Part shown: piece by piece, positions 1,340 through 28,288 of the stretch
Numbering within the stretch: position 1 is the first letter of the stretch
How the letters are laid out: every line of letters begins with the position of its first letter
From: Gammaproteobacteria bacterium
Lineage (GTDB): Bacteria; Pseudomonadota; Gammaproteobacteria; Burkholderiales; Burkholderiaceae_C
DNA length: 64,000 nt
Direction: 5' to 3'
NCBI GenBank assembly: GCA_025359085.1
Contig: JANYHL010000057.1
Coordinates: 1-64,000, forward strand
Position numbers and translations under genes: made by a program
Notes under the pieces: generated by a model
Database searches by the model: none
Told to the model about the DNA's origin: nothing
The model's input: the letters and a program-made list of their open reading frames with translations, nothing else

Positions 1340-1380
1340 CGCCTTGGGCGTCAGTTCCGCACATCGCTGGAAATAAGTGT

Positions 1381-1746
1381 GAAGCCCACCGATAAGCCGG
1401 ATTCTGTGCATTGAAGTTGCCCTCAATGTGACTGCCATTAATCTGGGCCGTTGGTCGCCCAACGGCTCGGTGCTACCTACCCGCACACTCCGGGGGCCCC
1501 GTCAACGTGTGCCTACTTGGTATTGCTGCGCGTAGAGATTGCCCGTTTCACCCGAACTTAATCGGCTCGTCTCTGTTGCTCTGATCCTCACCTTATAACG
1601 CGCACTTGCGTGCACGCATTTCAGTGGACAGCCGTTAGCTGCTACGCTGCCCTATGCAGTCCGGACGTTCCTCCAGTGCGGTGTTTCCACCCGACGCTTC
1701 TCGCGTCGTCCTTGCGGCTTGCACCAGCGGCAGTCTGGCGGGCTTC
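1381..1746 (-). ncRNA. rnpB: RNase P RNA component (bacterial class A)
   Basis: Reverse complement contains GGAGGAACGTCCGGACTGCATAGGGCAG, GAGATCAGAGCAACAGAGA-type and 3' AGAATCCGGCTTATCGGTGGGCTTC conserved RNase P RNA segments. Confidence 0.95.
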
Positions 1747-1861
1747 ACGCTCGTATTATCGTGGTTGAGCGTGGCTTACAGCCTTGGCTTCTAAACTTAT
1801 ACCCAAAACAATTGATCAAGTGGTTCAAAATAACTGCTCAATCACTTTTTGAGGAGCCCCC

Positions 1862-2779: not shown

Positions 2780-2874
2780 TCTCAGCTGCGCTGCTAGCGT
2801 GCACCGATGGTCCCGGGGCGCCCGTAAAATTGGCGACTTCTGCTTGATAAACACAAGCCTACCTGGCCCACAAG

Positions 2875-4575
2875 ATGATCCGACTCTCCGAGCTCAAGCT
2901 CGCGCTTGACCACACGCCTGAGGACCTGCAGGCCCTCGTCCTGCAAACCCTGGGTATTGCGTCCCCTCAGCTGGCGCAGTGGCAGATTTTCAAGCGCAGT
3001 TTTGATGCCCGCCAGGCCCAGGTGCGGGTGGTGTACATCGTGGATGCAGCGCTGACTGACCCGGCGCAGGAAGGCATTGTGCTGCAGCAGCACGCTGCCA
3101 ACCAGCACGTTCAAGCCACGCCCGACATGGGCTACCGGCTGGTGGCGCACGCCCCGGCGGATCTGGCCGTGCGCCCGGTCGTGGTGGGCTTCGGTCCGTG
3201 TGGCATTTTTGCCGCACTTATCTTGGCGCAAATGGGCTTGCGGCCGATCGTGCTGGAGCGTGGCAAAAAAGTGCGCGAACGCACCCAGGACACCTGGGGC
3301 CTGTGGCGCAAGCATGTGCTGAACCCCGAATCCAACGTGCAGTTTGGCGAAGGCGGCGCCGGCACGTTCTCGGACGGCAAGCTCTACAGCCAGATCAAGG
3401 ACCCGCGTTTTCTTGGCCGCAAAGTGATGCACGAGTTCGTCAAGGCCGGTGCGCCGCCAGAGATTCTGGTGGATGCCCACCCGCATATCGGCACCTTCAA
3501 GTTGGTGAAGGTGGTGGAGAACCTGCGCGAGCAGATCATTGCGCTGGGCGGCGACATCCGCTTTCAACAACGGGTGACAGATGTGTTGATCGAGGGTGAA
3601 GGGGACGAGCGCCAGGTGCGCGGCCTCACCGTGCTGGATCAGTCCAGCGGCCAATCCTACGAATTGGCGACCGAGCAGGCGGTGCTGGCGCTGGGCCACA
3701 GCTCGCGCGACACCTGTACCATGCTGTACCAGCGCGGCGTGGCGATGCAGGCCAAGCCGTTCTCGATCGGATTTCGCATCGAACACCCGCAAAGCGTGAT
3801 TGACCGCGCCCGCTGGGGCCGCCACGCCGGTCACCCCAGCCTGGGCGCCGCCGACTACAAACTGGTGCACCACGCCCACAATGGCCGCTCGGTCTACAGC
3901 TTTTGCATGTGCCCCGGTGGCACCGTGGTGGCGGCCACCTCGGAGCCCGGCCGCGTGGTGACCAACGGCATGAGCCAGTACTCACGCAACGAACGCAACG
4001 CCAACGCCGGCATCGTGGTCGGTATTGACCCGAGCGACTACCCCACCGATGCTGAATCTTTCCATGCCACCCTGGGCGAGCAGGTGCAGGCCCAAGCTGC
4101 GTCCGGCGCGATGTACCATCCGCTGGCCGGCATCGTGCTGCAACGCCAGCTGGAATCGAATGCCTATGTGATGGGCGGCTGCGACTACAACGCGCCGGCG
4201 CAACTGGTGGGCGACTTCCTGGCAGCCAAAGCCTCGACACAAGTGGGTGCCGTAGAGCCGTCCTACCAGCCAGGAGTCACGCTGTGCGATCTGAGCCCGG
4301 CCCTGCCCGGCTACGCCATCGACGCGATCCGGGAAGCGCTACCTGCCTTTGCCCGCAAGATCAAGGGCTTTGACATGCCGGACGCGGTACTCACCGGCGT
4401 CGAAACGCGCACCTCATCGCCCTTGAAAATGCCACGCGGCGATGATTTTCAGAGCATCAATACGAAGGGCTTGTACCCGGCGGGTGAAGGCGCCAGCTAT
4501 GCCGGTGGCATTTTGTCGGCCGGGGTCGACGGCATCAAGGTGGCCGAGGCGGTGGCCAGGCGCTTGCTGGCTTGA
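2875..4575 (+). CDS. FAD-dependent oxidoreductase (COG2509-type dehydrogenase)
   Basis: FGPCGIFAALILAQMGLRPIVLERG nucleotide-binding motif, GEGGAGTFSDGKLYSQIKD, C-terminal GEGASYAGGILSAGVDGIKVAEAV. Confidence 0.85.
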   Translation: MIRLSELKLALDHTPEDLQALVLQTLGIASPQLAQWQIFKRSFDARQAQVRVVYIVDAALTDPAQEGIVLQQHAANQHVQATPDMGYRLVAHAPADLAVRPVVVGFGPCGIFAALILAQMGLRPIVLERGKKVRERTQDTWGLWRKHVLNPESNVQFGEGGAGTFSDGKLYSQIKDPRFLGRKVMHEFVKAGAPPEILVDAHPHIGTFKLVKVVENLREQIIALGGDIRFQQRVTDVLIEGEGDERQVRGLTVLDQSSGQSYELATEQAVLALGHSSRDTCTMLYQRGVAMQAKPFSIGFRIEHPQSVIDRARWGRHAGHPSLGAADYKLVHHAHNGRSVYSFCMCPGGTVVAATSEPGRVVTNGMSQYSRNERNANAGIVVGIDPSDYPTDAESFHATLGEQVQAQAASGAMYHPLAGIVLQRQLESNAYVMGGCDYNAPAQLVGDFLAAKASTQVGAVEPSYQPGVTLCDLSPALPGYAIDAIREALPAFARKIKGFDMPDAVLTGVETRTSSPLKMPRGDDFQSINTKGLYPAGEGASYAGGILSAGVDGIKVAEAVARRLLA

Positions 4576-12646: not shown

Positions 12647-12725
12647 GGCGGGGTGCGGTGATGGTTGAAGGCGGCTTGAGTGTAGTGGCGCTCTGGAGCC
12701 ACCAGAAGTCTAAAATTTACCACTC

Positions 12726-13928
12726 ATGTTTGCCAACACCCTACACCCGTCTTTTCTTCAGAGCTGCAAACAGGCTTCCGGGCTGATCGTCTGGTTGATT
12801 GGCTTTTTTGCCTTTCTGAATGTCTACTCCATGCAGGCGGTGTTGCCCATGGTGATGAACGATTTTCAGGCTTCTCCCGTGCAAGCCGGCGTGACGGTGG
12901 GGGCGACCATCCTGGCGGTGGCGCTAGTTTCCCCCTTCATGGGGATGCTGTCCGACGCGTTCGGACGCAAAATCATTATTTGCGCCTCGATGTTCGTCCT
13001 GACGGTGCCGACGGCCCTGATCCCCCTGGCCGACAGCCTGAACGCGCTGATTGCCCTGCGTTTCCTTCAGGGGCTGGCGATTCCTGGCATCGTGGTGGTC
13101 CTGATTGCCTATATTTCCGAGGAATTCCATGCTGGCGGGGTCGCCCGTATGACCGCCACTTATGTCGGTGGCACGGTCATGGGTGGTTTTTGCGGCCGTT
13201 TTATCACGGGCCATGCGGGTCATTTGTTAGGCTGGCGAGGGGCGTTCCTCACTTTGGCGATCCTGAATTTTATTGGGGCTTTGCTGGTGGTGTGGCTGCT
13301 GCCGCCCTCCCGTTGCTTTGTTCCCAACCGCAATGTGAAAGCGGGGTTGAGCACACTGTGGCGCCACATGCATCACAAGCGACTGATGGCGGCTTGTGCC
13401 GTAGGTTTCTGCGTGCTGTTCTCGCTGGTGGGCACATTCACCTATGTCAACCTGCACTTGGCCTCTGCCCCCTTCTTTCTCTCTTCGGCTGGCCTGGCCA
13501 ATGTTTTCAGCGTCTATCTGGTCGGTGTCTTGGTGACCCCATTGGCCGGACCTTCTATTGTCCGGCTCGGTTTCCTGAAGTCGCTGCTGGCGGCCTTATC
13601 CCTGTCTGCCGCCGGCCTGCTCATGACGCTCTTGCCTTCCTTGACTGCAGTCATCATCGGTCTGACCGTGTGTTCCAGCGGCGTGTTCATTTGCCAGTCC
13701 GCCACCATCAGCGCGATTGCTCAAAACGTCAGCGAGGGACGCTCCTTGGCCACAGGCCTCTACTACATGAGCTATTACGCGGGCGGAGCGGCTGGCACCT
13801 TGGTGGCCGGGCTCGCCTACGAAGCCGGGGGTTGGCCCGGCGCGGTGTTCTCCATCGCACTCATGCAGGGGTTGGCTGGCGTCATCGCGGTTGTCGTTTG
13901 GCGCGCTCCAGCTGCAGGCAACACTTGA
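12726..13928 (+). CDS. MFS transporter
   Basis: 12-TM pattern with SPFMGMLSDAFGRKIIICASM MFS motif. Confidence 0.9.
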   Translation: MFANTLHPSFLQSCKQASGLIVWLIGFFAFLNVYSMQAVLPMVMNDFQASPVQAGVTVGATILAVALVSPFMGMLSDAFGRKIIICASMFVLTVPTALIPLADSLNALIALRFLQGLAIPGIVVVLIAYISEEFHAGGVARMTATYVGGTVMGGFCGRFITGHAGHLLGWRGAFLTLAILNFIGALLVVWLLPPSRCFVPNRNVKAGLSTLWRHMHHKRLMAACAVGFCVLFSLVGTFTYVNLHLASAPFFLSSAGLANVFSVYLVGVLVTPLAGPSIVRLGFLKSLLAALSLSAAGLLMTLLPSLTAVIIGLTVCSSGVFICQSATISAIAQNVSEGRSLATGLYYMSYYAGGAAGTLVAGLAYEAGGWPGAVFSIALMQGLAGVIAVVVWRAPAAGNT

Positions 13929-14055
13929 ATTCACGCTTCTTCGTTGCCTCGCTCATTCGTTTCTTGACCATGCCTGATATCTCCAAACATCCGTTGAAGA
14001 TATAACGCATGAGGCGACAAAAGATTGTCATGAGTTATGGAAAGATCAACAGGAC

Positions 14056-14931
14056 TCAATGCAGTTCTTGCAATGGCGCGGGACGCCATTTCGCCAGTCG
14101 GTTCTCAACCAGCGTCATGGCGTATTCAGCAGCAAGGGCGACGACCATGATGATCACGATGGCGGCATACATGCCTGCCGCGTCAAACGAACCTTTGGCC
14201 ACATTGATGAGCAAACCGATGCCATAGCGGGCACCGACAAATTCACCCACGATGGCGCCCACAATGGCGAAACCAAAACTCACGTGCAGGGAGGCAAATA
14301 TCCAGCTCATGGCGGACGGAATCACCACCGAACGGGTGAGCTGCCAGCCCCTGGCACCCAGAATCTGAGCATTGGCAAGCAGATTGCGGTCAGCCTCCAC
14401 CACGCCCTGGAAGGCGTTGGAAAACACCACAAAGAACACCATGACAAAGGACAAGGCCACTTTGGAAGTCAAGCCCAAACCAAAGATCATGATGAAAATC
14501 GGTGCCAACACCACCCGCGGCACGGAGTTGATGACCTTGATGTAGATCGAGAACACATCGGCCAGCATCCGGTTGCGTCCCAAGGCAATGCCAGCCACGA
14601 TACCGGCGATGGAACCGGAAAAGAAACCAAGTAGGGATTCTTCCATGGTGACCCAGAGGTGGAACCACAATGGTCCTTCCGACGTGCCGTCCACGATCCA
14701 TTCAACCAGGCGCATGACGATGGCCGACGGGCTTGAGAAAAAGAAGGGATCCAATAGCTTGAACTTGACAGCCAATTCCCAGCCCCCCAAAAAGAAGACG
14801 AGGATAAAGTAACGCCAAAAATAGACAGCAAATTTGCGCTGGCGCGTCGCTTTGGCAGCCTTGGCTTCAATTTCTGCGTCAGAGGTGCCAGGCTGAAAAA
14901 TGGCGCCTGCGGTAATAGTTGCATTAGTCAT
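14056..14931 (-). CDS. ABC transporter permease (nitrate/sulfonate/taurine type)
   Basis: TM protein with EADRNLLANAQILGARGWQLTRSVVIPSAMSWIFASLHVSFGFAIVGAIVGEF (EAA loop). Confidence 0.9.
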   Translation of the reverse strand: MTNATITAGAIFQPGTSDAEIEAKAAKATRQRKFAVYFWRYFILVFFLGGWELAVKFKLLDPFFFSSPSAIVMRLVEWIVDGTSEGPLWFHLWVTMEESLLGFFSGSIAGIVAGIALGRNRMLADVFSIYIKVINSVPRVVLAPIFIMIFGLGLTSKVALSFVMVFFVVFSNAFQGVVEADRNLLANAQILGARGWQLTRSVVIPSAMSWIFASLHVSFGFAIVGAIVGEFVGARYGIGLLINVAKGSFDAAGMYAAIVIIMVVALAAEYAMTLVENRLAKWRPAPLQELH

Positions 14932-14940
14932 GTTGACTCC

Positions 14941-15759
14941 TTAGGCCACCAAGGCTTCTTCACGGGCCACCCCACGCTGCACCTCGTCGCGCAGATCTTC
15001 CCAAATGGTGCGAGAAATGTCGATAAAGCGTTTGTCGTAGCGGATATCGCTCACGATGCGGGGACGAGGGAGATCGACGGGGTACACCGACTTGACCGTG
15101 GCGGGTCCCGCAGTGAGCACATAAACCTTGTCAGCCAGGGCGACGGCCTCTTCAAGGTCATGTGTGACAAAAACCACGGAGGCCTTGGCCTGCGACCACA
15201 GGCGCAGAAGCTCCTCATGCATCAAGGCGCGGGTCTGCACATCCAGCGCTGAAAATGGCTCATCCATCAACAAAATTTGCGGTTCATTGATGAAGGTCTG
15301 TGCCAACGAGACGCGTTTTCGCATACCGCCGGAGAGTTGATGGGGATACTTTGATTCGTGACCAGAAAGATTCACACGCGCCAGCCACTCACGCGCTTTG
15401 ACGTAGGCCTGTTCTTGGGGCATACCGCGAAACAGCGGTCCCGCAACCACATTGTCAATCACACTTCGCCATGGGAAAAGTGCATCCGTCTGGAAAGCAA
15501 AGCCGATGCGTGGATGGATGCCTGTGACCGGGGCGCCCATCACCCGAACCTCCCCTGCCGAGGGCTTGGCCAGACCAGTGACCAGGTTCAAGGTGGTGGA
15601 TTTTCCGCAACCGGTCGGGCCGACCACCGCGACAAACTCACCACGCGTAACGGACATGTTGAAGTCCCGCAAGGCGGTCATGGATTTTCCGTCCGGGGTA
15701 AGAAAACGGCGACTGACGTTGATTAACTCAATCGCCGGGCTATCGTTGTGATCGGTCAT
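14941..15759 (-). CDS. ABC transporter ATP-binding protein (nitrate/sulfonate/taurine type)
   Basis: Walker A GPTGCGKST, LSGGMRKRVSLAQ signature, LLMDEPFSALD. Confidence 0.93.
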   Translation of the reverse strand: MTDHNDSPAIELINVSRRFLTPDGKSMTALRDFNMSVTRGEFVAVVGPTGCGKSTTLNLVTGLAKPSAGEVRVMGAPVTGIHPRIGFAFQTDALFPWRSVIDNVVAGPLFRGMPQEQAYVKAREWLARVNLSGHESKYPHQLSGGMRKRVSLAQTFINEPQILLMDEPFSALDVQTRALMHEELLRLWSQAKASVVFVTHDLEEAVALADKVYVLTAGPATVKSVYPVDLPRPRIVSDIRYDKRFIDISRTIWEDLRDEVQRGVAREEALVA

Positions 15760-15772
15760 TGCTTGCTCCAGC

Positions 15773-16783
15773 TTACTTCGCGTTCTTCACGAACTCCGTG
15801 GTGTAGGTCTTCGACAAATCTACGGTCTTGCCTTTGACATTCTTCGAGAACGCAGACAACACGGAGAGAACAGTTTCTGGACCTCCCGCGGGCATCACGC
15901 CATCGGCGGTGAACATCGCCTTGCCGTCAGCCAGGGCCTTGACGTAGCCTTCTTTATCACCCGCGTAGAAATCCTTGGGCATCTTGTCGGCAATCTCGGC
16001 TGCACTGTGCGTGCTGATGTACTTCAGCGTTTTCACGAAAGCATTCGCCAATTTTTGTACCGTCGGCTTGTTTTTCTCGACCCAATCGGTGGGCATGTAC
16101 AGCGACGCTGCAGGATAGGTACCGCCCAGCGCCTGTTTGGTCTTCTCCACAGTTCGCATATCCACCAGAATGCGGGCCTCGCCCGTCTTGAGCATGCGCG
16201 AGATGGTGGGCTCAGTGGTCATGCCGGCCTGAATCTTGTCCTGGGTCATTGCGGCGATAAAGGTCGTCCCCGCGCCCACCGGTATGGTCGAGAATTCGCC
16301 CAGCGGAACGCCCGCCTTGACCATCAGGTACTGCGAGAGAAAATTGGTGGAAGAGCCCAAGCCGGTGACGCCCAGGCTTTTGCCACGCAGGTCAGCCATG
16401 GATTTAATTTCAGGGTGTTTGGTGGACACCAGTTCAACTTCACCGGGGGCTTGGCTGAACTGCACCACGGATTCAACGTATTTGCCTTTGGTCTGCAAAT
16501 CAACACAGTGGTCGTAGAAGCCCACCACACCTTGCACCGCGCCTGCCAGCATTTCATTTTCGGCATCCACGCCAGAGCCTTCGTTCAGCAACTCAACGTC
16601 CAGCCCTTCAGCCTTGAAATATCCCAAGCCTTCCGCCAGTTTGGCCGGCAAATAAATGTGCTTTTCATAGCCGCCAACCATAATGATCACTTTGTCGGCG
16701 GCCACGGCAGCGCAGGACGCGAGAACAACAGTGGCAAGGGCCAAGGCCTTGAAGAGCCGGGTCGGGTTTGAATTGAGTTTCAT
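15773..16783 (-). CDS. ABC transporter substrate-binding protein (NMT1/THI5-like)
   Basis: Signal peptide, VIIMVGGYEKHIYLPAKLAEGLGYFKAEGLDVELL; operonic with permease and ATPase. Confidence 0.88.
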   Translation of the reverse strand: MKLNSNPTRLFKALALATVVLASCAAVAADKVIIMVGGYEKHIYLPAKLAEGLGYFKAEGLDVELLNEGSGVDAENEMLAGAVQGVVGFYDHCVDLQTKGKYVESVVQFSQAPGEVELVSTKHPEIKSMADLRGKSLGVTGLGSSTNFLSQYLMVKAGVPLGEFSTIPVGAGTTFIAAMTQDKIQAGMTTEPTISRMLKTGEARILVDMRTVEKTKQALGGTYPAASLYMPTDWVEKNKPTVQKLANAFVKTLKYISTHSAAEIADKMPKDFYAGDKEGYVKALADGKAMFTADGVMPAGGPETVLSVLSAFSKNVKGKTVDLSKTYTTEFVKNAK

Positions 16784-16934
16784 GGGTGCTCCTGAGTTGA
16801 TGGGGTAGCGGACGATAGATGCGGCCTGCTTTCAGTCCGCTTTCAATTATCGAAACCTAGGGAAAGTACTGAGTCGTTTCTACAGGTCTATGATTTGCCA
16901 TCATTTTTTTGCCATCTCCCTGCAACTGCACACC

Positions 16935-17609
16935 ATGCGAATCCTGGTAGTCGAAGACAACACTGAATTGGCGCAATGGCTGGGGCGCACCTTGCGCAAA
17001 GAGCAATACACCGTAGACTGCATCGACAACGGCGCGGATGCTGACTTCGCCCTGAAGTCTGAAAACTACAACTTGGTCATCCTCGATCTCGCCTTACCCA
17101 GGCTGGATGGAAAAGAAGTGTTGCGACGCCTGCGGGCACGCCATGACCAGACGCCGGTGCTGATCCTGACCGCCAACAACACGATCCAGAGCCGGGTCAG
17201 TGAACTTGACCAGGGCGCAGACGACTACATGGCCAAGCCCTTTGAGATCGAAGAACTCGAAGCGCGTATCCGCATGCTCTTGCGGCGATCTTCAGGCCAC
17301 ACCACCCCCCTGATTGCCTGCGGCAATCTGAGCTACAACACCAACACGCGCGAATTCCAGATTTCCCAGCAGCCCATGGCGCTGACGCCCCGAGAGCGCG
17401 CGGTGCTGGAGATGCTGCTACGCAAATCGGGCACCAGCGTCACCAAACAAGCGTTGGCCCAAAGCCTGTTTTCCTTAAGCGAGGATGCGTCCACCGATGC
17501 CATCGAGATCTACGTACACCGCTTGCGCAAAAAACTGGAACACAGCTCCGCGCAGATCATGACATTGCGTGGATTGGGCTACCTGCTGCGCCAAGCGGAT
17601 AATGACTAG
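16935..17609 (+). CDS. OmpR-family response regulator (TctD-like)
   Basis: MRILVVEDNTELAQWLGRTLRKEQ...VILDLALPRLDG..., C-terminal winged helix VHRLRKKLE. Confidence 0.92.
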   Translation: MRILVVEDNTELAQWLGRTLRKEQYTVDCIDNGADADFALKSENYNLVILDLALPRLDGKEVLRRLRARHDQTPVLILTANNTIQSRVSELDQGADDYMAKPFEIEELEARIRMLLRRSSGHTTPLIACGNLSYNTNTREFQISQQPMALTPRERAVLEMLLRKSGTSVTKQALAQSLFSLSEDASTDAIEIYVHRLRKKLEHSSAQIMTLRGLGYLLRQADND

Positions 17610-18975
17610 CAGCCTTCGAAGGCAGTTGCTGGCCTGGGTTTTATTGCCCTTGATGTGCGCCGTCGCAGTGGATACCTGGCTCGCATACAAAAGTTCCGTG
17701 GCTACGGCGTCGGTCGTGCAGGACCGCTTGCTGCTGGGCTCGGCACGAATGATTGCAGAGCAGATCAGCTTTGAAGACGGTTCATTTCAGCACCAGATAC
17801 CGCCAGCCGCGCTGGATCTCTTCCAGTCAAAGGAGTCTGATCGAATTTTCTATCGCGTGACCACGGGTTCGGGCCAGCTTCTAGCCGGCTATACAGATTT
17901 GCCGGTGCCCAGGCTGACATTTTCAGCCGATTCATCCTACTTTTTTGGTGCCACCATGCGAGGTGAAGCCGTGAGAGTAGTTGCTTTCTTTCAGCCTGTC
18001 ATTGGCAATCCATCGGCCCTGCCGGTGGTCGTGGAAGTGGCGCAAACAACCCATGGTCACGCGCAACTGACGTCTAAACTGTGGCTGCATGCGGTGGGGC
18101 AGCAGTTGCTGATATTGGCCCTGGCCACCATCTTCATTCTGTATGGCCTGCATCGCGGCCTGCAACCCTTGACTCGTTTGCACCAGGATGTCCGCTCACG
18201 CAAAGAGGGTTCCTTACAGCTTCTGCAGACCGACCGAATTCCGACTGAATTAGCGCCCTTGGTGGATTCATTCAATGACTACATCCAGCGACTGGAGAGC
18301 TATACCAACCTTCGCAGCACCTTCATCCAGAATGCGGCACATCAACTGCGTACCCCACTTGCCGTATTGAACACCCAAATCAGCGATGCTCTGCGCGCTG
18401 AAAACAAGGAAAGCGGCGAAAGGTCGATGGTTGCGGCACGCAGGACGCTCCAGCAAACCGGGCGCCTGGTCAACCAGTTTTTGAGTCTGTCTTCTGCGGA
18501 AGCCTATGTCGCCACCAAGACGCGGATGTCAACTCAGGAGTGCTGCGACATCGTCCAGAGGGTTTTGGAAGATCTTGCCGTTCAGGCCCACAGCAAGAAT
18601 ATCGATTTGGGCTTTGAGCGCATCGGCGCCGACGCTGTCATAGCAACTGATCCGGCTGCATTGCGCGAAATCGCAGTCAACATCATCGACAACGCCATTC
18701 GGTACACGCAAGCTCACGGCGTGGTTACCGTGCGGGTGCAGTCAGCCGAGGGGAAAATTTCTCTGGCTGTTGAAGACAATGGACCGGGTGTACCTTTCGA
18801 GAGCCAGGAAAAAATATTTCAGCGCTTCTACCGCATGGGCGGTGCAGACTCAACGGGTAGTGGCCTCGGTCTTGCCATCGTCAAAGAGCTCGCGTCCCAA
18901 TGCGGGTGCACGGTACGTGTGGACACACCGCCCCATGGGCGCAGAGGTCTTTTAATAATGATTGATTTCTTCTGA
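17602..18975 (+). CDS. Sensor histidine kinase (TctE-like)
   Basis: NAAHQLRTPLAVLNTQ H-box, NIIDNAIRYT N-box, DNGPGVP and GSGLGLAIVKEL G-boxes; overlaps response regulator stop. Confidence 0.92.
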   Translation: MTSSLRRQLLAWVLLPLMCAVAVDTWLAYKSSVATASVVQDRLLLGSARMIAEQISFEDGSFQHQIPPAALDLFQSKESDRIFYRVTTGSGQLLAGYTDLPVPRLTFSADSSYFFGATMRGEAVRVVAFFQPVIGNPSALPVVVEVAQTTHGHAQLTSKLWLHAVGQQLLILALATIFILYGLHRGLQPLTRLHQDVRSRKEGSLQLLQTDRIPTELAPLVDSFNDYIQRLESYTNLRSTFIQNAAHQLRTPLAVLNTQISDALRAENKESGERSMVAARRTLQQTGRLVNQFLSLSSAEAYVATKTRMSTQECCDIVQRVLEDLAVQAHSKNIDLGFERIGADAVIATDPAALREIAVNIIDNAIRYTQAHGVVTVRVQSAEGKISLAVEDNGPGVPFESQEKIFQRFYRMGGADSTGSGLGLAIVKELASQCGCTVRVDTPPHGRRGLLIMIDFF

Positions 18976-19338
18976 GAATGCCCCTCGCTGGGTTCCAGCA
19001 GCGCATCTGGGCTGATTGCCCAGGACGCAGAAAAACAGTGCTCGGTATCTCCACCCAAGCGGCTAACGCCTGCGTTTAGATGTTTCTTCCACGCCACGTT
19101 CCCTGCTGCGACCAAGACAACTTTCAGTGCCCGCAAGGGCAAGACTCCTGTGTCAGGTGCAATGCGCCTGACTATTTGAAACAAGGGTAAACCCTACTGT
19201 TGAACGCCACAGTTGGCGCTGAAGCGATGGGTACATATCATCGGCAGCGTTTCCGCGTTGGGTTCGCTGATTGGCTATGCCCCACGTGAATCGGAACGCC
19301 CAACCTTCTTTATCACCCCGTTCAAGGCCCTAGCCATC

Positions 19339-20685
19339 ATGTCAAAGACGTCCACGCGCAAGCCACTCTACAAATCACTTTATGTTCAGGTCCTGTTCGC
19401 CGTCACCATTGGCGTGTTGCTGGGCCACTTCTCCCCGGATCTGGGTACACAGATGAAACCTTTGGGTGACGGTTTCATCAAGTTGATCAAGATGATCATC
19501 GCGCCTATCATCTTCTGTACCGTGGTGGTCGGCATTGCCGGCATGGAAGACATGAAGAAGGTGGGCAAGACAGGGGGTTTGGCGCTTCTCTATTTCGAAG
19601 TGATGTCTACCTTGGCCCTGCTCGTAGGTTTACTCGTCGTCAATGTAGTGCAGCCTGGCACCGGAATGCATGTGGATCCTTTGTCACTGGACACCAAGGG
19701 AATTACCGCTTACACGGCACCCGGCAAGATGCAAGGCTCTGTGGATTTTCTGCTCAATGTCATTCCGTCCTCGGTGGTAGACGCATTTGCCAAGGGTGAG
19801 ATCCTGCAGGTTCTGTTGTTCTCCGTATTGTTTGGCTTTGCACTGCATAAATTCGGCGGACGCGGCACGATGGTGTTTGACTTCATTGAGAAGTTTTCCC
19901 ACGTTTTATTCGACATTGTCGGCATCATCATGAAGGTCGCTCCGATTGGTGCCTTCGGTGCCATGGCGTTCACGATCGGGAAATACGGTCTGGGATCGCT
20001 GTTTTCTCTGGGCAAGCTCATGGGCGCGTTTTACCTGACCTGCCTGATCTTTGTTTTCGGGATATTGGGCATCGTCAGCCGTCTGAATGGTTTCAGCGTG
20101 TTCAAGTTTGTGCGCTATATCAAGGAAGAATTACTGATCGTTCTGGGCACCTCGTCTTCAGAATCGGTGTTGCCCCGCATGATGGAAAAGATGGAAAACC
20201 TGGGTGCGCGCAAGTCGGTGGTCGGGTTGGTGATTCCAACTGGTTACTCCTTCAACCTCGACGGCACGTCAATTTACCTGACCATGGCCGCGGTATTCAT
20301 CGCTCAAGCCACGGATACTCCGATGACGCTGGTGCAGCAAGCGACGCTGTTGGCCGTGCTGCTGCTGACGTCCAAGGGCGCCGCAGGTGTCACGGGCAGC
20401 GGGTTTATCGTGCTGGCAGCGACCTTGTCCGCTGTGGGCGGCGTACCAGTGGCGGGCTTGGCGCTTATTCTTGGGATTGACCGCTTTATGTCAGAGGCGC
20501 GCGCGTTGACCAACTTGGTGGGCAACGGTGTGGCAACGCTGGTGGTGGCGAAATGGACTGGGGATCTGGACATGAATCGCTTGCACCAGGGATTGGACAA
20601 CCCCACCATGCTGGAGTCGCAGGAGCCGGAGGCGATTTTGGACTTGCAGGTCTCGCACATGAATGTGATGAAGGCCAAGACCTGA
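19339..20685 (+). CDS. dctA: C4-dicarboxylate transporter DctA
   Basis: [24 protein letters not shown]...[55 protein letters not shown]. Confidence 0.95.
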
Positions 20686-20799
20686 AACGGTTCAATTTAT
20701 GGCTGAATAAAGGCGGTTTCCTCTGCAGGAGATCGCCCTTATTGGTTCATACGAACCATAATTTACGACTGAGATGTACCGCCAACACAGGCAAAAAAT

Positions 20800-20990
20800 C
20801 ACTCCGAACTCTGCTGGAGCGCCCACATCTGCGCATAACGGCCATTCAATACCAACAACGCTGCATACGAGCCACGCATCAATGATGCGCCCAGCGTCCA
20901 TCACCTTGGCGATACGCGCCGCCCACGCGATGGCCTCGTCGCGCGAAGACAGTTCCAACACGGTGAAGCCGCCATCGAGCGTGGGCGCTC
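20800..20990 (-). pseudogene. Chimeric remnant: YCII-domain fragment fused to a frameshifted C-terminus of an ATM1-like ABC transporter
   Basis: Minus frame GGFTVLELSSRDEAIAWAARIA (YCII-like) runs into KVMDAGRIID; a shifted frame then reads RGSYAALLVLNGRYAQMWALQQSS, matching VMEAGRIIERGSHAELLAAGGRYAEMWALQQSAE of the transporter at 26465-28288. Confidence 0.7.
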
Positions 20991-21001
20991 AAGGATAGAG
21001 G

Positions 21002-21478
21002 TCACGTTTGCCAAGACTGCCACCTAGCAACGTATTCGTTGAGAACCTCCAATTGCTTGGAGGGAAACTCGTGTTGGACCCATTTCTCTTTGTAGGTAAC
21101 AAGACCATGCTCGGCGAGCACACTCGCGGCGGCTGACTGCACGGCCAGACCAAACTCAAGCGGATGGCAGGAGAACTCGACCAGCAACTGACCTTCGGAG
21201 TCAGGGAGATTGCTCCAGAGTTCGGAAAACTTTAAGAGGCGAATCTTGATCTCGGTTGGCGTGACTCGGTTGACGCTCCAACGGTACTCGCCTGGTTCTT
21301 CATCAAACCCGAAGGAAACGCTTGCGAAGCCAGCCAAGACCGAACATGCACCGAGGACTAGAGTGGCCAGGGCATCAGAGAGATACGACGCCGAGAGTTC
21401 GCACTCGAGTTCTTCGGACGTGACTTTGCACCGAGACCACCCGGCGCCAACGAGCTGATAGTCGATGGAGAGCTTCAT
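21002..21478 (-). CDS. Hypothetical protein, integron cassette ORF (distal; attC not recognisable after its stop)
   Basis: Minus-strand ORF preceded by candidate attC 21482-21562. Confidence 0.65.
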   Translation of the reverse strand: MKLSIDYQLVGAGWSRCKVTSEELECELSASYLSDALATLVLGACSVLAGFASVSFGFDEEPGEYRWSVNRVTPTEIKIRLLKFSELWSNLPDSEGQLLVEFSCHPLEFGLAVQSAAASVLAEHGLVTYKEKWVQHEFPSKQLEVLNEYVARWQSWQT

Positions 21479-21481
21479 GAC

Positions 21482-21562
21482 CGCTAACGTTGCCGCTAAC
21501 CGGCCCGAAACGGCGGCGCAACGCGCCGCTGTTGGGGGTCCGTGTTCATCGGCGGGTTAGAC
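21482..21562 (-). repeat. Candidate attC recombination site (cassette 3)
   Basis: R'' GTCTAAC (minus) overlaps the stop of the 21557-22117 ORF; core CTAAC at 21484-21488; internal CGGCGGCGCaaCGCGCCGCTG hairpin. Confidence 0.65.
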
Positions 21563-22117
21563 CTGTGCTTGCGTAAGACGAATATCGACTTCTCGGTCGA
21601 CGTATTTCCATTCCTCTGACGCACGCAGTTCGGAAAGCAGCATGTTGAACTCAACCTCATGAATTGGCGCGTATTCGAACCAATTCAGAAAATCGAACGG
21701 TTCACTTTCTGAGAGGTCGCGGCAGTGGTGGAGCTTGCGCGCTACTGCAGGCAAGTATTGAAGCCCGATTTGGACGTGCTTCGACTGTTCGAAAACGCTC
21801 CGGCGTTCGTCTTGCGTGAGCTCCCACCAAGCTGCGTTCTTCCGGATCGGTATTAGCGCAGCGAACGTTGCTTCTGGGCGCGCCAGACCTTGCTGCTTCG
21901 CTACAATTTCATTCTTCTCTGCGCGCATGACATATCGTTCATTGCTGGTTATTCCACGAAGTATCCAGGGTGCATTGGTTTCAGATTGCACCTCTGAAGC
22001 GGATACGACGTTGAGCCTTTTGGCTTCAGGCAGTGGCTCGCCAACTCTGGTTTCGGCCCTGACAATCCGCCAAGGGCCAATGTCTGCGCCGACGAATGCA
22101 AATAATCGTGTATTCAT
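21557..22117 (-). CDS. Chlorite dismutase-superfamily-like protein, integron cassette ORF
   Basis: WILRGITSNERYVMRAEK...ALIPIRKNAAWWELTQDERRSVFE...LQYLPAVARKLHHCRDLSESEPFDFLNWFEYAPIHEVEFNMLLSELRASEEWKYVDREVDIRL. Confidence 0.65.
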   Translation of the reverse strand: MNTRLFAFVGADIGPWRIVRAETRVGEPLPEAKRLNVVSASEVQSETNAPWILRGITSNERYVMRAEKNEIVAKQQGLARPEATFAALIPIRKNAAWWELTQDERRSVFEQSKHVQIGLQYLPAVARKLHHCRDLSESEPFDFLNWFEYAPIHEVEFNMLLSELRASEEWKYVDREVDIRLTQAQV

Positions 22118-22136
22118 TTCAACCTTTCGTGTTGAG

Positions 22137-22199
22137 GTCTAACGTTTGAAATCAGGGGACGCCAGCTTGCTGGCGGTCCCCTGGATTGAATTGTTAGAC
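22137..22199 (-). repeat. attC recombination site (63 bp, well conserved)
   Basis: GTCTAAC...GTTAGAC perfect consensus ends flanking AGGGGACGCCAGC-TTG-CTGGCGGTCCCCT hairpin; overlaps stop of the 22194-22895 ORF. Confidence 0.88.
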
Positions 22200-22895
22200 G
22201 GCAGCATTTGAACGGACCCCATATTTTTGGAAGTGTTGTTCCATCATTTCGTCTCCGCCAAAGTCCCGCTGTAGTAGCCGAAGTCTTTGAAGGTTTTTGT
22301 CGTCCCCTTCATAGGGGATGTCCGTCCAACCTCTCGGAAGTCCGACGGACTCTTCAATGTCTTCAATTGTCCAGCCAAGTGCGGCAAGACCTTTCTCTGT
22401 GAAGATTGCTCGCGGATCAACGTACGCCCAGAAGTCTCGATAGCAACGTTCAATTACCTTTAGTACCTCTACGAAATATTCCTCAGCAAGTCTTGTGACC
22501 TCTCCAGCCGGAGCCTTTTCTAGCCCGCCGATGTCCACAAAATACGACAGGTGCTTTACTTCGCCGTTACGCATTGTTCCTGTGTGTCCTACCGGTATTT
22601 CTCCAACTTTTTGCAAGTAATTTCTAAGGTTTACGAAATATTTGGCGAGATCATTTGACCTCAATCCTTCTTGCTCTCGTGCGTACCAAGAATCGAAATC
22701 TGGATACTTTGACATTACGGCCTGAAGAGAAAATGTGATGCTTCTCGCTGCGGATGTGAATGCGCTTAGGACGTATGAGAATTCGTGATAGCGCCCTTGA
22801 ACCGATTTCAGCATTTCAAGAAAGTAATCGGCCTCTCCAACTTTTTGCGCGACGATGTAGAAGCCTTTGGACGGGAATTGAAACTTTTCAGTCAC
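22194..22895 (-). CDS. Hypothetical alpha-helical protein, integron cassette ORF
   Basis: Intact 233-aa ORF between attC core sites at 22193-22199 and 22915-22921. Confidence 0.7.
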   Translation of the reverse strand: MTEKFQFPSKGFYIVAQKVGEADYFLEMLKSVQGRYHEFSYVLSAFTSAARSITFSLQAVMSKYPDFDSWYAREQEGLRSNDLAKYFVNLRNYLQKVGEIPVGHTGTMRNGEVKHLSYFVDIGGLEKAPAGEVTRLAEEYFVEVLKVIERCYRDFWAYVDPRAIFTEKGLAALGWTIEDIEESVGLPRGWTDIPYEGDDKNLQRLRLLQRDFGGDEMMEQHFQKYGVRSNAAV

Positions 22896-22921
22896 CTCAA
22901 ATTTCCTTTGGCCGTTCTAAC

Positions 22922-24440
22922 GAATGAAAGGGATTTCCCCGTCCCGAGCAAGCCGCGCCCCGTGGGGGTTGCGGTTTACGGCAACTGAGTGCCAAGATGG
23001 AGAGGCAAATCTTTTCATCAACTCACTTGAGAGGGGAAATCATGGCTATCGTAACCGTTGGAATCGATCTCGCCAAGAACGTCTTTGCAGTGCACGGCGT
23101 CGATGAGTTCGGCAAACCTGTGTTGGTGCGCCCGGAGGTGCCCCGCGCCAAACTTCTGGAGCTCATCGCCAATCTGCCACCCTGCCTGATCGGCATGGAA
23201 GCGTGCTCCGGCGCCCACCACTGGGCCCGAGAGTTCGCCAGGTTCGGGCACACCGTGCGTATGATGGCGCCGAAGTTCGTTGTGCCCTATCGCATGAGCG
23301 GCAAGCGCGGAAAGAACGATGCGGCCGACGCGGCAGCAATCTGCGAAGCCGTTACACGGCCCAACATGCGCTTTGTGCCTGCCAAAAGCATCGAGCAGCA
23401 GTCGCGCCTGTTTGTGCACCGTGCGCGCCAGGGCTATGTGGAGCAGCGCACCGCGCTTATCAACCGCATTCGAGGCTTGTTGTCCGAACTTGGCATCGTG
23501 CTGCCGCTCAAAGCCGCCACCGTGCGCCGTGAAGCACACCAGCATCTGGAGGACCTGCCAGGATGGTGCAACACCGTGGTGGGCGATGCTCTGAGTGAAC
23601 TCACTCGCCTGGACGAACGCATTACCCAGTACGATAAATACATCGCCCAGTCAGCTAAGGACGATGCACAGGCCAGACGGCTCATGCAGCTCGGTGGCAT
23701 TGGTCCGGTCACTGCCAGCGCCATTGTCGCCACCGTGGGGAAAGGCCACGACTTCAGTTGCGGACGTCAGTTCTGTGCTTGGCTGGGCTTGGTTCCAGGT
23801 CAATACAGCTCGGGTGGCAAGCAGCGCCTGGGCCGCATTACCAAGGCCGGTGACCCGTACTTGCGCACCCTGTTGATCTTGGGTGGCAAAGCCGTGCTGG
23901 CGGCAGCCAAAAATAAGACCGATCCAGTGAGCCGCTGGGCGATTTCAGTACAGGAGAGACGCGGCTATTGGAAAGCCGTGGTGGCTATCGCGGCAAAGAA
24001 TGCGCGCATGTGTTGGGCCATGCTGCAGCGCGGCGAGGCGTTCAAGATGCCTGCGTAATCAGGTCAATGTGGCAGTATTTGAAATCGAAGTTGTTGATGT
24101 CACCGTGTGATGACTTGTCGTTGATGAGTGAAAGGTTTAGACCTGCGCCGGGGAATGCTCGTTTAGCTCAAGGAGGTCAACTGGGTTGGGCAACCAATTC
24201 TGAGCCTCGACTAACGAATGGAGCCCTCGGCGCGCGTCTTTCATCAGGGTCCGCTGCAAGCAAAGCAGCCTCGAATGACCGTTTGTAGTTTCGCCGTCCA
24301 CATGCCTTGCGCTCTATAGGCAACGACCGATAGCACGGGAGATACAGAGGGAGAAAGGGATTCAGGTTTCGTGGTCAATCGCTGCGCGATTCAACCACGA
24401 TGGAATTCTGTTTGACAAAGGTAGGGAAGCCCTTGTAGTT
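22922..24440 (+). mobile_element. IS110-family element, IS1111-like group, inserted in an attC site
   Basis: Transposase plus candidate subterminal inverted repeats AAGGGATTTCCCC (22928-22940) and GTAGGGAAGCCCTT (24421-24434); attC core remnants on both sides. Exact ends approximate. Confidence 0.7.
23043..24058 (+). CDS. IS110-family transposase (DEDD/Tnp20 type)
   Basis: VGIDLAKNVFAVHGVDE...GMEACSGAHHWAREFARFGHTVRMMAPKFVVPY...KNDAADAAAICEAV...LMQLGGIGPVTASAIVATVG...FCAWLGLVPGQYSSGGKQRLGRITKAGDPYLRTLL. Confidence 0.95.
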
Positions 24441-24499
24441 TGAGGTAACCGGCCTCGCGCGCTTTATGCGCGAGGTCGGTGTTGACCGAGAGGTTAGCC
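24435..24499 (-). repeat. Part of an attC site truncated by the IS110 element
   Basis: Minus GGCTAAC overlaps the stop codon of the 24494-25216 ORF, followed by CCGACCTCGCGC-ATAAA-GCGCGCGAGGCCGG hairpin; opposite core GTTAGAA lies across the IS at 22915-22921. Confidence 0.6.
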
Positions 24500-25216
24500 A
24501 TCACCGTCTTTCCTTTGCACTCGTGATGGCAACTTTGTGGTACACGACTGAAGTGATTCGGCTGCTTGTTCGATGAGAGCTGATAGCTCGGAAACCGCTT
24601 GTGCCTCTTTATCTGCACTAACAGGTACCTTGAAATACCTAAGTCCTGCAACCTCAATGCGGTCACGTTCGTGAACGAACAGCCTATGCACTGAGAGAGA
24701 CATGAGCGGCGCATCTGCACGAGTGTCGACTGGCCGAACGAAGGGGAATACCTGCCCTTTTTCACCTTCTTTTGCATTACGCACCGTCAGAACTAGCGAC
24801 GGTCCAAGCACGCCGTTGGCTTGGCTTTGGCTAAAGTTACGCGGATACGCCTCCACACCCTTCTGGTTTTGGGCTGAGAGATTTCCGATCTCCACTTCCA
24901 CCGATCTTCCCGCAGGAACAGTCGATGCCACAACAAATATTGCCGTCATGTCGTTAAAGGCGGCACGGCTGAAGTAAAGCGTGTTGTTGTTATACATCGC
25001 CTCAGCAAGTGCGTCCGCATCATTGGCGCGAGGGAATGTTAGACAGAATACATTTCCGAAGCGGTGCTGCCCGTTCCACAGTTGTTGTTTTCCGGAAAAC
25101 CTCGCCTCCAGAAACTTAGAAGATAGTTGAAAGGATTGCTGCGCCGACACCGTACTTGTTTCAACTAAGGCCATGGCGGCTGAAAAGACGAGTAGGAACG
25201 AGTGGGGAATTTTCAT
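24494..25216 (-). CDS. Hypothetical secreted protein, first integron cassette ORF
   Basis: MKIPHSFLLVFSAAMALVETSTVSAQQ signal peptide; stop overlaps attC core; cassette boundary GTTAGCC at 25243-25249 (minus) upstream. Confidence 0.7.
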   Translation of the reverse strand: MKIPHSFLLVFSAAMALVETSTVSAQQSFQLSSKFLEARFSGKQQLWNGQHRFGNVFCLTFPRANDADALAEAMYNNNTLYFSRAAFNDMTAIFVVASTVPAGRSVEVEIGNLSAQNQKGVEAYPRNFSQSQANGVLGPSLVLTVRNAKEGEKGQVFPFVRPVDTRADAPLMSLSVHRLFVHERDRIEVAGLRYFKVPVSADKEAQAVSELSALIEQAAESLQSCTTKLPSRVQRKDGDG

Positions 25217-25354
25217 GGCGGCGGTCGCGTGGTGGTTGTGATGGCTAACGTAATGTAGATGGCAAAAGCCGGTCGATACATCCAGCCGTTGACGATACAT
25301 CTTCTATACAAAAACCCTGCAAACCGCTTGCAGCATGGTTACTTGACTCATATA

Positions 25355-25370
25355 CTGTATTTATATACAG
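25355..25370 (+). promoter_or_regulatory. LexA (SOS) box in the intI promoter
   Basis: CTGTATTTATATACAG = CTG-N10-CAG, 13 bp before the intI ATG; TTGACT at 25343-25348 as possible -35. Confidence 0.75.
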
Positions 25371-25383
25371 GTATAAATTTTTC

Positions 25384-26298
25384 ATGAAACCCGGCACTCC
25401 TCCGTTGAAATCGGCCCGCTTGCTCGATCAGGTGCAAGAGCGGGTTCGTTACCTGCACTATAGCCTCAAGACCGAAAAGGCTTATCTTTATTGGATACGT
25501 TTTTTTATTCGCTGGAATGCTGCCCAAGGGTCAGGTATGCGACACCCGCGCGACATGGGCGTGACGGAAGTTGAGGCCTTCCTCACCATGATGGCCACCG
25601 AACGCAAGGCATCTGCTTCCACCCATAACCAGGCACTGAGTGCGTTGTTGTTTCTTTATCGCGAAGTGCTCAATATCGATTTGCCGTGGTTAAACAACAT
25701 TGGGCGGCCGCAACAAACCAAACGCATTCCATCCGTGTTGACGAAAGACGAAGTTGCTGGTCTTCTGGCCCAAATGGATGGCATTGCCGCGCTGCTGGCA
25801 AAGCTGCTGTACGGCACGGGCATGCGCTTGATGGAGGGAATCCGCCTTCGGATCAAGGATGTGGATTTTGACCGCCACGTCATCATCGTTCGCGAGGCCA
25901 AAGGTGGCAAGGATAGCGTGGTCATGCTGCCGCATTCGCTGGCACCGACCTTGCGTTTGCAAATGCTGGCGGCGCGGGCGCAGTGGGAGGCAGACCGCCA
26001 AGCGCAGCGCGGCGGTGTAGAAACCCCGCACGCGCCGGAGCAGAAATACCCCCAGGTGGGCAATACGTGGGGGTGGTTCTGGATGTTTCCATCGCCAACG
26101 CTTTCAATTGACCCACGCAGTGGTGTCGAACGGCGGCACCATTTGTTTGAAGAGCGGCTACAACGGGCGCTCAAGAAGGCCGTGCCACTGGCTGGCATTC
26201 ACAAACCAGTTTCAGTCCACATCCTTCGCCATTCATTTGCCACCCACCTTCTGCAAGCTGGCACCGACATCCGCACGGTGCAAGATAGCCTGGTGTGA
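25384..26298 (+). pseudogene. intI: Integron integrase (IntI family tyrosine recombinase), 3'-truncated
   Basis: YLHYSLKTEKAYLYWIRFFIRW...; IntI-specific insertion GVERRHHLFEERLQRALKKAV; HILRHSFATHLLQAGTDIRTVQDSLV* ends before the GH and Tyr catalytic motifs. Confidence 0.88.
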
Positions 26299-26365
26299 TG
26301 AATGACCGCTCCCGCCGCCCTTCGCAGCAGCCCCAAACTTGTTACGTGATCCCAGAACGCGACCC

Positions 26366-26444
26366 GCAGAGATTGGGGCATGGGTCCCCGCCGATTTCTG
26401 GGCATTTGACAGCATGAGGCGGGGGGCCATGCCCCAATCTCTGC
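26366..26444. repeat. 27-bp inverted repeat with 25-nt loop (strong hairpin)
   Basis: GCAGAGATTGGGGCATGGGTCCCCGCC ... GGCGGGGGGCCATGCCCCAATCTCTGC, 25/27 complementary. Confidence 0.85.
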
Positions 26445-26464
26445 CACCAAAGCCATGACTTGCG

Positions 26465-28288
26465 TCACTCAGCCGACTGCTGCAACGCCCACATCTCCGC
26501 ATACCTCCCACCCGCTGCCAACAATTCCGCATGCGAACCCCGCTCAATAATCCGCCCCGCCTCCATCACCAGAATCTCATGCGCGTCCACCACCGTGGAC
26601 AAGCGGTGCGCAATCACCAGCGTGGTCTTGTTCTGCGCCACACTTTGCAGCTCGGCCTGGATGGCGCGCTCGTTGGCGGAGTCCAGCGCTGACGTGGCTT
26701 CGTCGAAGATCAATATCGGCGGGTTTTTCAGCAGGGTGCGGGCAATCGCCACGCGCTGTTTTTCGCCGCCCGAGAGTTTGAGCCCGCGCTCGCCCACCAT
26801 GGTGTCGTAGCCCTTGGGCGTGGCGTTGATGAAATTGTGAATGTGGGCGCTGCGGGCCGCATCGATCACTTGCGCGCGCGTGGCGCCGGGTTTGCCGTAA
26901 GCGATGTTGTATTCCACCGTGTCGTTGAACAGCACGGTGTCCTGCGGCACGATGCCGATCGCTTGCCGCACCGACGCTTGGGTGACTTGCTTGATGTCCT
27001 GCCCGGCAATCAATATTTGGCCTTGCTGTACATCATAAAAACGGAACAAGAGCCGCGCCAACGTGGACTTACCGGAGCCCGAGGGGCCGACCACCGCCAC
27101 GGTTTTGCCGCTTGGTATCTCGAAGCTGATGTCATGCAGGATCGGCCGCGCCGCCTCATAGGCGAAGTTGACGTGGCTAAACGTCACGTTAGCGCCATCC
27201 ACCCTGAGCGGCTGCGCACCCGGCAGGTCGGCAATTTCGCGCTCGCGCTCCATCAGGGTGAACATCTTGTCCAGGTCGGTCAGGCTTTGCTTGATCTCGC
27301 GGTACAGCACGCCCAAAAACCCGAGCGGAATGTAGAGCTGGATCATGAACGCGTTGACCATCACCAGGTCACCCAGCGTCATGTGGCCGTCGACCACGCC
27401 TTGCGTCGCGCGCCACAGCATGGCGACCAGGCCGGTGGCGATGATGAGCTGCTGGCCGGTGTTGAGCAAGCTCAACGTGCGCTGGCTCTTGAGGGCTGCC
27501 AGGCGGTAATTCTTCAGGTTTTCGTCGTAACGGTGGGCCTCGAACTCTTCGTTGTTGAAGTACTTGACGGTCTCGAAGTTCAACAGCGAGTCGATGGCCC
27601 GACTGTGCGCTTTGGAGTCGAGTTCGTTCATGACCTTGCGAAACTGGGTGCGCCACTCGGTCACGGTCACGGTGAAGCTGATGTAGAACACCAGCGCAAT
27701 GATGGTGATCAGGGCAAACCAGATGTCAAACTTGACCGCCAGGTAGGTCAGCACCATGGTCACTTCGATCAGCGTCGGGATGATGCTGTAGAGCGAATAC
27801 GAAATCAGCGAATTGACCGCGCGCGTGCCGCGCTCGATGTCGCGCGTCAGGCCGCCGGTCTGGCGTTCCAGGTGAAAGCGCAAGCTCAGGGCGTGCAAAT
27901 GGCGAAACACTTGCAGCGAGATCGTGCGCGACGCGCCCTCGGTGGCTTTGGCAAACACCAGCTCGCGCAACTCGGCGAACAAGGTGGTGGACAGGCGCAG
28001 CAAGCCATAGGCCAGCAGCAAGGCCGCTGGCACCACCAGCAAGGCGGTGGCGTCGATGCCGCCCTTGGGGTTCATGGTGTCGATCAGTTGCTTGAGCAGC
28101 AAGGGCACGCTCACGTTGGCTGTTTTGGCCGCCACCATGAACGCCAATGCGGCCATCACGCGCCATTTGTACTCCCACAGATAAGGGAACAGGCGCCTGA
28201 GCGTCGCCCAGTCAGAACGGGTGGGGGCAGGAACGGGCGCTGCAGGGGCGCCGTGGTCGGCGGAGGAATGGTGGCGCATGGGGGACAA
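26465..28288 (-). CDS. ATM1-type ABC transporter (fused permease and ATP-binding)
   Basis: Six-TM domain with LRDIERGTRAV-like motif; Walker A VGPSGSGKST, LSGGEKQRVAIART, ILIFDEATSALD. Confidence 0.92.
   Translation of the reverse strand: MSPMRHHSSADHGAPAAPVPAPTRSDWATLRRLFPYLWEYKWRVMAALAFMVAAKTANVSVPLLLKQLIDTMNPKGGIDATALLVVPAALLLAYGLLRLSTTLFAELRELVFAKATEGASRTISLQVFRHLHALSLRFHLERQTGGLTRDIERGTRAVNSLISYSLYSIIPTLIEVTMVLTYLAVKFDIWFALITIIALVFYISFTVTVTEWRTQFRKVMNELDSKAHSRAIDSLLNFETVKYFNNEEFEAHRYDENLKNYRLAALKSQRTLSLLNTGQQLIIATGLVAMLWRATQGVVDGHMTLGDLVMVNAFMIQLYIPLGFLGVLYREIKQSLTDLDKMFTLMEREREIADLPGAQPLRVDGANVTFSHVNFAYEAARPILHDISFEIPSGKTVAVVGPSGSGKSTLARLLFRFYDVQQGQILIAGQDIKQVTQASVRQAIGIVPQDTVLFNDTVEYNIAYGKPGATRAQVIDAARSAHIHNFINATPKGYDTMVGERGLKLSGGEKQRVAIARTLLKNPPILIFDEATSALDSANERAIQAELQSVAQNKTTLVIAHRLSTVVDAHEILVMEAGRIIERGSHAELLAAGGRYAEMWALQQSAE

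What the first reader, a model, noticed from the sequence alone, without database searches (positions are those of the whole stretch)
20999..26298. Degenerate chromosomal integron: truncated IntI, divergent cassette array, both outer ends lost
Seen: an IntI-type integrase on + with minus-strand ORFs diverging from it (24494-25216, 22194-22895, 21557-22117, 21002-21478). For three of the four, the stop codon lies inside a GTTA core (24493, 22193, 21556), as expected when cassette ORFs read into attC. The integrase lost its catalytic end and the last cassette (21002-21478) shows no R'' at its stop, so both outer boundaries look eroded. The array is probably frozen unless integrase is supplied in trans.
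Basis: partly seen in the sequence, partly recalled or inferred. Interest (0 to 1): 0.75.

Follow-up and report, generated by a model that had tools for sequence, protein, structure and literature searches.

The report
Dead chromosomal integron with inserted IS
This is a worn-out gene-capturing platform (an integron) in a Rhodoferax-type bacterium: its integrase has lost the end that cuts DNA, a guide-RNA insertion sequence sits in one of its cassette sites, and both edges are broken, which is a common fate for such platforms and so largely ordinary.

Summary
The locus is a degenerate sedentary chromosomal integron of the Comamonadaceae type in a Rhodoferax genome. The 304-aa IntI clears the NCBIfam integron-integrase cutoff but stops at model position 286/315, before the last catalytic His and Tyr. 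It groups with Comamonadaceae IntI, not Xer. attI (core exactly 138 bp upstream of the ATG) and a LexA box are intact. A covariance model built only from relatives' attCs finds attC2 (E=2.5e-13) and attC3 (E=1.5e-5) as the top two hits in 64 kb.

Cassette 4 has lost its last residues and its attC. Beyond it lie a YCII-gene fragment and the 3' remnant of an ABC-transporter gene that relatives keep whole; truncated intI abuts a dispersed palindromic repeat. Cassette 3 (chlorite dismutase) matches, including its attC, the passenger of a Tn3-family plasmid transposon at 97.5% nt. The assembly holds a second, integrase-less cassette array, and no other intI was found. About 18 of 30 Rhodoferax intI loci are broken. 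New member of a known kind; modest interest.

The parts
25384..26298 (+). Truncated integron integrase intI (304 aa). Homology to intact IntI ends at about codon 303 (near 26292); the stop TGA 26296-26298 lies in non-intI flank. Lost: ~30 C-terminal residues with the last catalytic His and Tyr. Also R178S, L218P, T280I at family-invariant positions.
   Evidence: (TIGR02249 374.9 bits vs cutoff 265, model 1-286/315)
25355..25370 (+). LexA-box-like operator CTGTATTTATATACAG just upstream of intI; same position in most related intI genes
25243..25383 (-). attI region: recombination core GGCTAAC (25243-25249), TAACGTA exactly 138 bp upstream of the intI ATG as in most related platforms; homology to relatives' platforms stops at 25246
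24494..25216 (-). Cassette 1 ORF (240 aa, no family match); its 5' core GTTAGCC (25243-25249) is complementary to its own attC R'' GGCTAAC (24493-24499)
24439..24499 (-). 5' part of attC1 (R'' to L'); the matching R' (GTTAGAA) is at 22915-22921, on the other side of the inserted IS
   Evidence: (partial model hit 24438-24489)
22922..24438 (+). Complete IS1111-attC-type insertion sequence inside attC1 (ends +-1-2 bp); copies in L069, L060 (two), L072, L031 and L035 show the same end(s) at the same attC position
22997..24058 (+). IS110/IS1111 DEDD transposase (353 aa), open frame
   Evidence: NF033542, 350.9 bits vs cutoff 140
24161..24221 (+). Putative seekRNA guide segments in the downstream non-coding region: GTTTAGCTCAA (24161-24171, top-strand complement) and GACTAACGAATGG (24209-24221, matches left flank plus IS end); both differ along with the target in a plasmid relative
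   Evidence: family organisation from PMC11187229
22194..22895 (-). Cassette 2 ORF (233 aa, function unknown; 32% identical homologs on alphaproteobacterial plasmids)
22137..22199 (-). attC2, 63 bp, complete, R''/R' fully complementary
21557..22117 (-). Cassette 3 ORF: chlorite dismutase family (186 aa), 96.8% aa identical to the passenger of a Tn3-family plasmid transposon
21482..21562 (-). attC3, R' imperfect (GTTAGCG); the same attC follows the gene in the transposon, where homology ends at the core crossover point (21487)
21002..21478 (-). Cassette 4 ORF, 3' end lost: homology to an intact cassette (L236) ends at codon ~154 (21019); no attC follows
20906..21016 (-). Fragment of a YCII-type gene fused between cassette 4 and the ABC-gene remnant (left junction debris; extent approximate)
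   Evidence: PF03795, E=0.0041, below Pfam's curated cutoff
20797..20905 (-). 3' remnant of ABC-transporter gene 1, which relatives keep whole beside ABC gene 2
26314..26450 (+). Dispersed palindromic (REP-like) repeat abutting the truncated intI; also abuts truncated intI fragments in L054 and L201

Best explanation
It is a decayed sedentary chromosomal integron. Originally, SOS-inducible IntI (LexA-box promoter) captured cassettes at attI; four cassettes remain, transcribed away from intI. An IS1111-attC element, guided by its own RNA, inserted beside the R' core of attC1. Separate deletions or rearrangements removed the far end of the array from within cassette 4 onward, along with most of a neighbouring ABC-transporter gene, and the last ~30 codons of intI, joining it to a dispersed repeat. 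IntI without its tyrosine cannot cleave, so the array is fixed in cis. attC2 is structurally complete and attC3 nearly so; they could still be used by an integrase in trans, but none was found in this genome. Shown: anatomy, family membership, truncations, IS position, junction partners. Inferred: order of events, catalytic inactivity, any residual cassette expression, use in trans.
For: IntI family membership and truncation. attI core at -138 and LexA box shared with relatives, with platform homology ending at the cassette boundary. attC covariance hits from a model that excluded the window. Cassette 5' core and own R'' complementary in cassettes 1 and 3 and nearly so in 2. IS copies at the same attC position in other integrons. 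Cassette 3 shared with a transposon over its length including attC. Cassette 4 shared with another genome, 5' cassette boundary included and 3' end missing here. ABC-gene synteny in relatives. Substitutions at invariant IntI residues. No other intI in the assembly.
Against: R' of attC3 pairs with its R'' at only 5 of 7 positions. attC1 is seen only as two parts; its partial model hit alone is not significant (E=0.16). No convincing cassette promoter Pc was found. The assembly is a 149-contig draft at 97% completeness, so an intact intI outside it cannot be excluded. Cassettes 1, 2 and 4 have no assigned function.
Confidence: 0.93

Rival explanations
1. The integron was moved to this place by recombination between copies of the dispersed palindromic repeat, rather than decaying in place: intI-repeat units exist at different loci in relatives.
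For: intI fragments abut this repeat in the window, L054 (beside an mtfA-like gene) and L201 (another locus); the intI-repeat junction aligns between L054 and L201. This genome's own copy of the L054 flank (contig C30) has the repeat but no intI. dctA and the ABC gene lie 2.3 Mb apart in G063 but are neighbours here.
Against: The intI break differs between the window (codon ~303) and L054 (codon 228). In several relatives the repeat lies beside the ABC gene without intI, so it belongs to that locus. No donor locus with the missing intI end was found.
Confidence: 0.35
2. The cassettes near intI and the second array on contig C49 are two halves of one original array split by a rearrangement.
For: C49 holds attCs at 730-798, 1285-1349, 1864-1951 and weaker ones at 2765-2849 and 3719-3804, all on one strand, with no intI. 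The window array is cut on its distal side.
Against: C49 is cut by the contig end at its proximal side, so its upstream neighbour is unknown. No sequence links the two arrays.
Confidence: 0.25
3. Not an integron: a Xer or phage recombinase pseudogene beside unrelated minus-strand genes with chance GTTA motifs.
For: Tyrosine recombinases share folds, and cassettes 1, 2 and 4 have no known function.
Against: IntI-specific family match above cutoff and IntI clade; attC covariance hits; attI core at the conserved offset; cassettes 3 and 4 found elsewhere with matching cassette boundaries.
Confidence: 0.01

Closest known systems
Sedentary chromosomal integrons of Comamonadaceae (Rhodoferax, Polaromonas and relatives)
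   Same: IntI 78-86% identical to the nearer ones; attI core at -138; LexA box; divergent cassettes; related attCs
   Different: IntI truncated, distal array end lost, IS in attC1, platform set in a disrupted ABC-transporter locus
Degenerate integrons with inactivated intI (Xanthomonas, PMC12444791; survey PMC2426708)
   Same: intI truncated or absent while cassettes persist; nearly one third of intI genes are pseudogenes in the survey
   Different: Different lineage and locus; here about 18 of 30 genus loci are broken
IS1111-attC insertion sequences (ISKpn4, ISPst6, ISPa25; PMC11187229)
   Same: DEDD transposase, downstream non-coding region, insertion at one end of an attC
   Different: A Comamonadaceae branch; a relative on pPNAP04 has guide-like segment and target changed together
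Class 1 integron (IntI1)
   Same: 57.5% IntI identity over 303 residues
   Different: Chromosomal; no 3' conserved segment or resistance cassettes seen; integrase dead
Tn3-family plasmid transposon carrying chlorite dismutase and cupin genes (pMOL28, pDSM1084, p138R)
   Same: Carries the cassette 3 gene with the same attC, 97.5% nt
   Different: No integrase there; the cassettes travel as transposon passengers

Membership tests
Chromosomal integron | Integron-integrase gene with the IntI-specific region | tested here: met
   TIGR02249 374.9 bits vs cutoff 265; best solved match is Vibrio IntI4 (2a3v) E=5.5e-68; clade separate from own Xer with 100/99 support
Chromosomal integron | Functional integrase with complete catalytic residues | tested here: not met
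   Last ~30 residues incl. LLGH and Tyr missing: this is a remnant, not an active integron
Chromosomal integron | attI beside intI | tested here: met
   Core TAACGTA at -138, as in most relatives; platform homology ends there
Chromosomal integron | Array of at least two attC sites | tested here: met
   attC2 E=2.5e-13, attC3 E=1.5e-5; attC1 in two parts around an IS
Chromosomal integron | Cassette promoter Pc | tested here: inconclusive
   One weak sigma-70-like match on the cassette strand inside intI (25910-25882), no more than shuffles give
Chromosomal integron | Chromosomal setting | tested here: met
   Flanked by dctA and ABC-transporter genes with chromosomal synteny in relatives
IS1111-attC group | IS110/IS1111 DEDD transposase | tested here: met
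   NF033542 350.9 bits; PF01548 and PF02371
IS1111-attC group | Fixed insertion position at one end of attC | tested here: met
   Same junctions in several other integrons
IS1111-attC group | Guide RNA from the downstream non-coding region | tested here: inconclusive
   Guide-like segments match targets and change with them by sequence; RNA not measurable here
IS1111-attC group | Subterminal inverted repeats | tested here: inconclusive
   Imperfect GGGATTTCCCC / GGGAAGCCC near the ends, read by eye
Xer or phage integrase | Groups with XerC/XerD or phage integrases | tested here: not met
   Own-genome Xer proteins fall outside the IntI clade; Xer models far below cutoff; no phage integrases were put in the tree

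The most novel reading that the evidence does not exclude
Chromosomal integrons of Comamonadaceae are the source of the chlorite-dismutase (and probably cupin) passenger cassettes of a Tn3-family transposon now on broad-host-range plasmids, some in clinical isolates. The transposon would have captured an attC-bounded two-cassette block, making a mobile integrase-less array.
Probability: 0.45. Interest if true: 0.45.

Novelty: new member of a known kind. Interest (0 to 1): 0.3.

Why it matters
It documents how a chromosomal integron ends: integrase truncation, a guide-RNA insertion sequence inside an attC, and loss of both outer edges, while single attCs stay intact. It links a chlorite-dismutase cassette in an environmental chromosome to a plasmid-borne transposon, a traceable example of cassette traffic, and offers a natural pair (window IS and pPNAP04 IS) for testing guide-RNA retargeting of IS1111 elements.

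Tried and rejected
Tn6048 as the name of the cassette 3 transposon: rejected; the papers describe Tn6048 as a metal-response (mmf) element without this gene. A bias towards keeping the 5' end of intI in the genus: rejected as largely a query artefact, because the window query lacks the C-terminus; with a full-length query several 'N-terminal-only' loci show internal deletions with both ends kept. Rfam: nothing above chance for the region or the palindromic repeat. Function of cassettes 1, 2 and 4: Pfam, NCBIfam, PADLOC and PHROGs gave nothing convincing. The strict attC scan in relatives missed many attCs, so the covariance model rests on 12 sites. The missing intI end was sought elsewhere in the genome and not found. 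Contig C49 was not linked to any other contig by its terminal attC.

Full report
Setting. The window is contig C70 of a 149-contig, 97%-complete genome in the genus that the retrieved records call Rhodoferax. intI occurs once; other hits in the genome are Xer-like proteins.

Integrase. The ORF 25384-26298 matches TIGR02249 integron integrase (374.9 bits, cutoff 265) but only over model positions 1-286 of 315. Its best solved relative is the Vibrio integrase 2a3v, E=5.5e-68, against 5.7e-11 for XerD. In a tree of 35 proteins it sits with Rhodoferax and Polaromonas IntI (100/99), apart from the genome's own Xer proteins (100/99). Homologs continue LLGHSDVSTTMIYTH after the point where the window reads DSLV-stop, so the last catalytic histidine and the tyrosine are gone. 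Three further substitutions hit residues invariant in 49 of 49 relatives (R178S, L218P, T280I). The 98%-identical copy in L054 keeps the first two, so these two arose after the two copies diverged.

Platform. Upstream of intI the core TAACGTA lies 138 bp before the ATG, exactly as in most related platforms, and a LexA box overlaps the promoter region. DNA homology with relatives' platforms ends at 25246, the expected attI/cassette crossover.

Array. Cassettes 1 to 4 are ORFs 24494-25216, 22194-22895, 21557-22117 and 21002-21478, all minus strand. A covariance model from 12 attCs of other genomes, the window excluded, finds attC2 (E=2.5e-13) and attC3 (E=1.5e-5) as the top two hits of the 64 kb, and part of attC1 (E=0.16). 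attC1 is split by an IS of about 1517 bp (22922-24438). Other copies in L069, L060, L072, L031 and L035 share its end(s) and its position in attC. Its transposase is a full-length IS110-family protein. The non-coding region downstream, where IS1111 elements encode a seekRNA (PMC11187229), holds GTTTAGCTCAA and GACTAACGAATGG. These fit the attC target, and in the pPNAP04 relative both the segment (GAATAAAGAATGG) and the flank (ATAAA) are changed together. This is sequence evidence only.

Cassette traffic. Cassette 3 is a chlorite dismutase (Pfam and PDB matches). It matches plasmid copies at 97.5% nt from 22132 to 21487, i.e. almost the whole cassette with its attC. There it is a passenger of a Tn3-family transposon with a resolvase, a toxin-antitoxin pair and a cupin gene, the latter also followed by an attC-like site. 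Cassette 4 has a homolog in L236 with the same 5' boundary (GTTAGCGGTCATG or nearly so) and an attC-type R'' at its stop; the window copy diverges after codon 154 and has none.

Edges. In relatives the ABC-transporter gene 26465-28288 has a second ABC gene beside it. In the window that second gene survives only as 20797-20905, followed by a YCII-like fragment (E=0.0041, below curated cutoff), then cassette 4. On the other side intI runs into a palindromic repeat (26314-26450) that is dispersed in the genus and lies beside this ABC gene in relatives without intI. intI fragments abut the same repeat in L054 and L201. Whether the repeat drove the rearrangement is open.

Second array. The same model finds attCs on contig C49 (730-798, 1285-1349, 1864-1951; weaker 2765-2849, 3719-3804), all on one strand with no integrase found, near an MFS gene and purM. 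Its cassettes include BrnT and TumE-type toxin genes. The contig starts inside an attC-like hairpin, so its proximal side is unknown.

Genus pattern. A search seeded with this IntI hit 33 of 90 genus genomes. Of 30 loci checked with a full-length query the script scored 12 intact; one of these (L192) has an in-frame internal deletion, leaving 11, with one more (L011) cut by a contig end. About 18 are frameshifted, internally deleted or truncated (some could be assembly artefacts or contig-edge effects). intI pseudogenes are known to be common (PMC2426708; PMC12444791).

Verdict. Ordinary in kind; the shared chlorite-dismutase cassette and the co-varying IS guide are the points worth keeping.

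Noticed in passing
L242 (G000:C49) 1-3804: Second attC array (at least four cassettes incl. BrnT and TumE-type toxin genes) without integrase in the same genome, next to an MFS gene and purM.
   Followed up: partly
window 26314-26450: Palindromic REP-like repeat dispersed through Rhodoferax genomes, strong hairpin (z -6.7), not in Rfam; several intI fragments end right beside it.
   Followed up: partly
L218, L219, L222: Tn3-family plasmid transposon whose chlorite-dismutase and cupin genes are each followed by attC-like sites, so its passengers look like gene cassettes; not noted in the papers read.
   Followed up: partly
L220 4001-5517 (pPNAP04): IS relative whose putative guide and left target flank are both changed from CTAAC to ATAAA: apparent natural retargeting away from attC.
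   Followed up: partly
window 12690-20721: About 8 kb (MFS, ABC uptake system, two-component system, dctA) absent from the corresponding place in relatives such as G077; in G063 dctA lies 2.3 Mb away from the ABC gene.
   Followed up: no
L010, L041: Integrons of other genomes lie next to genes that surround the C49 array here (purM; the region at C49 7.3-10.9 kb), hinting at a shared chromosomal neighbourhood for these platforms.
   Followed up: no
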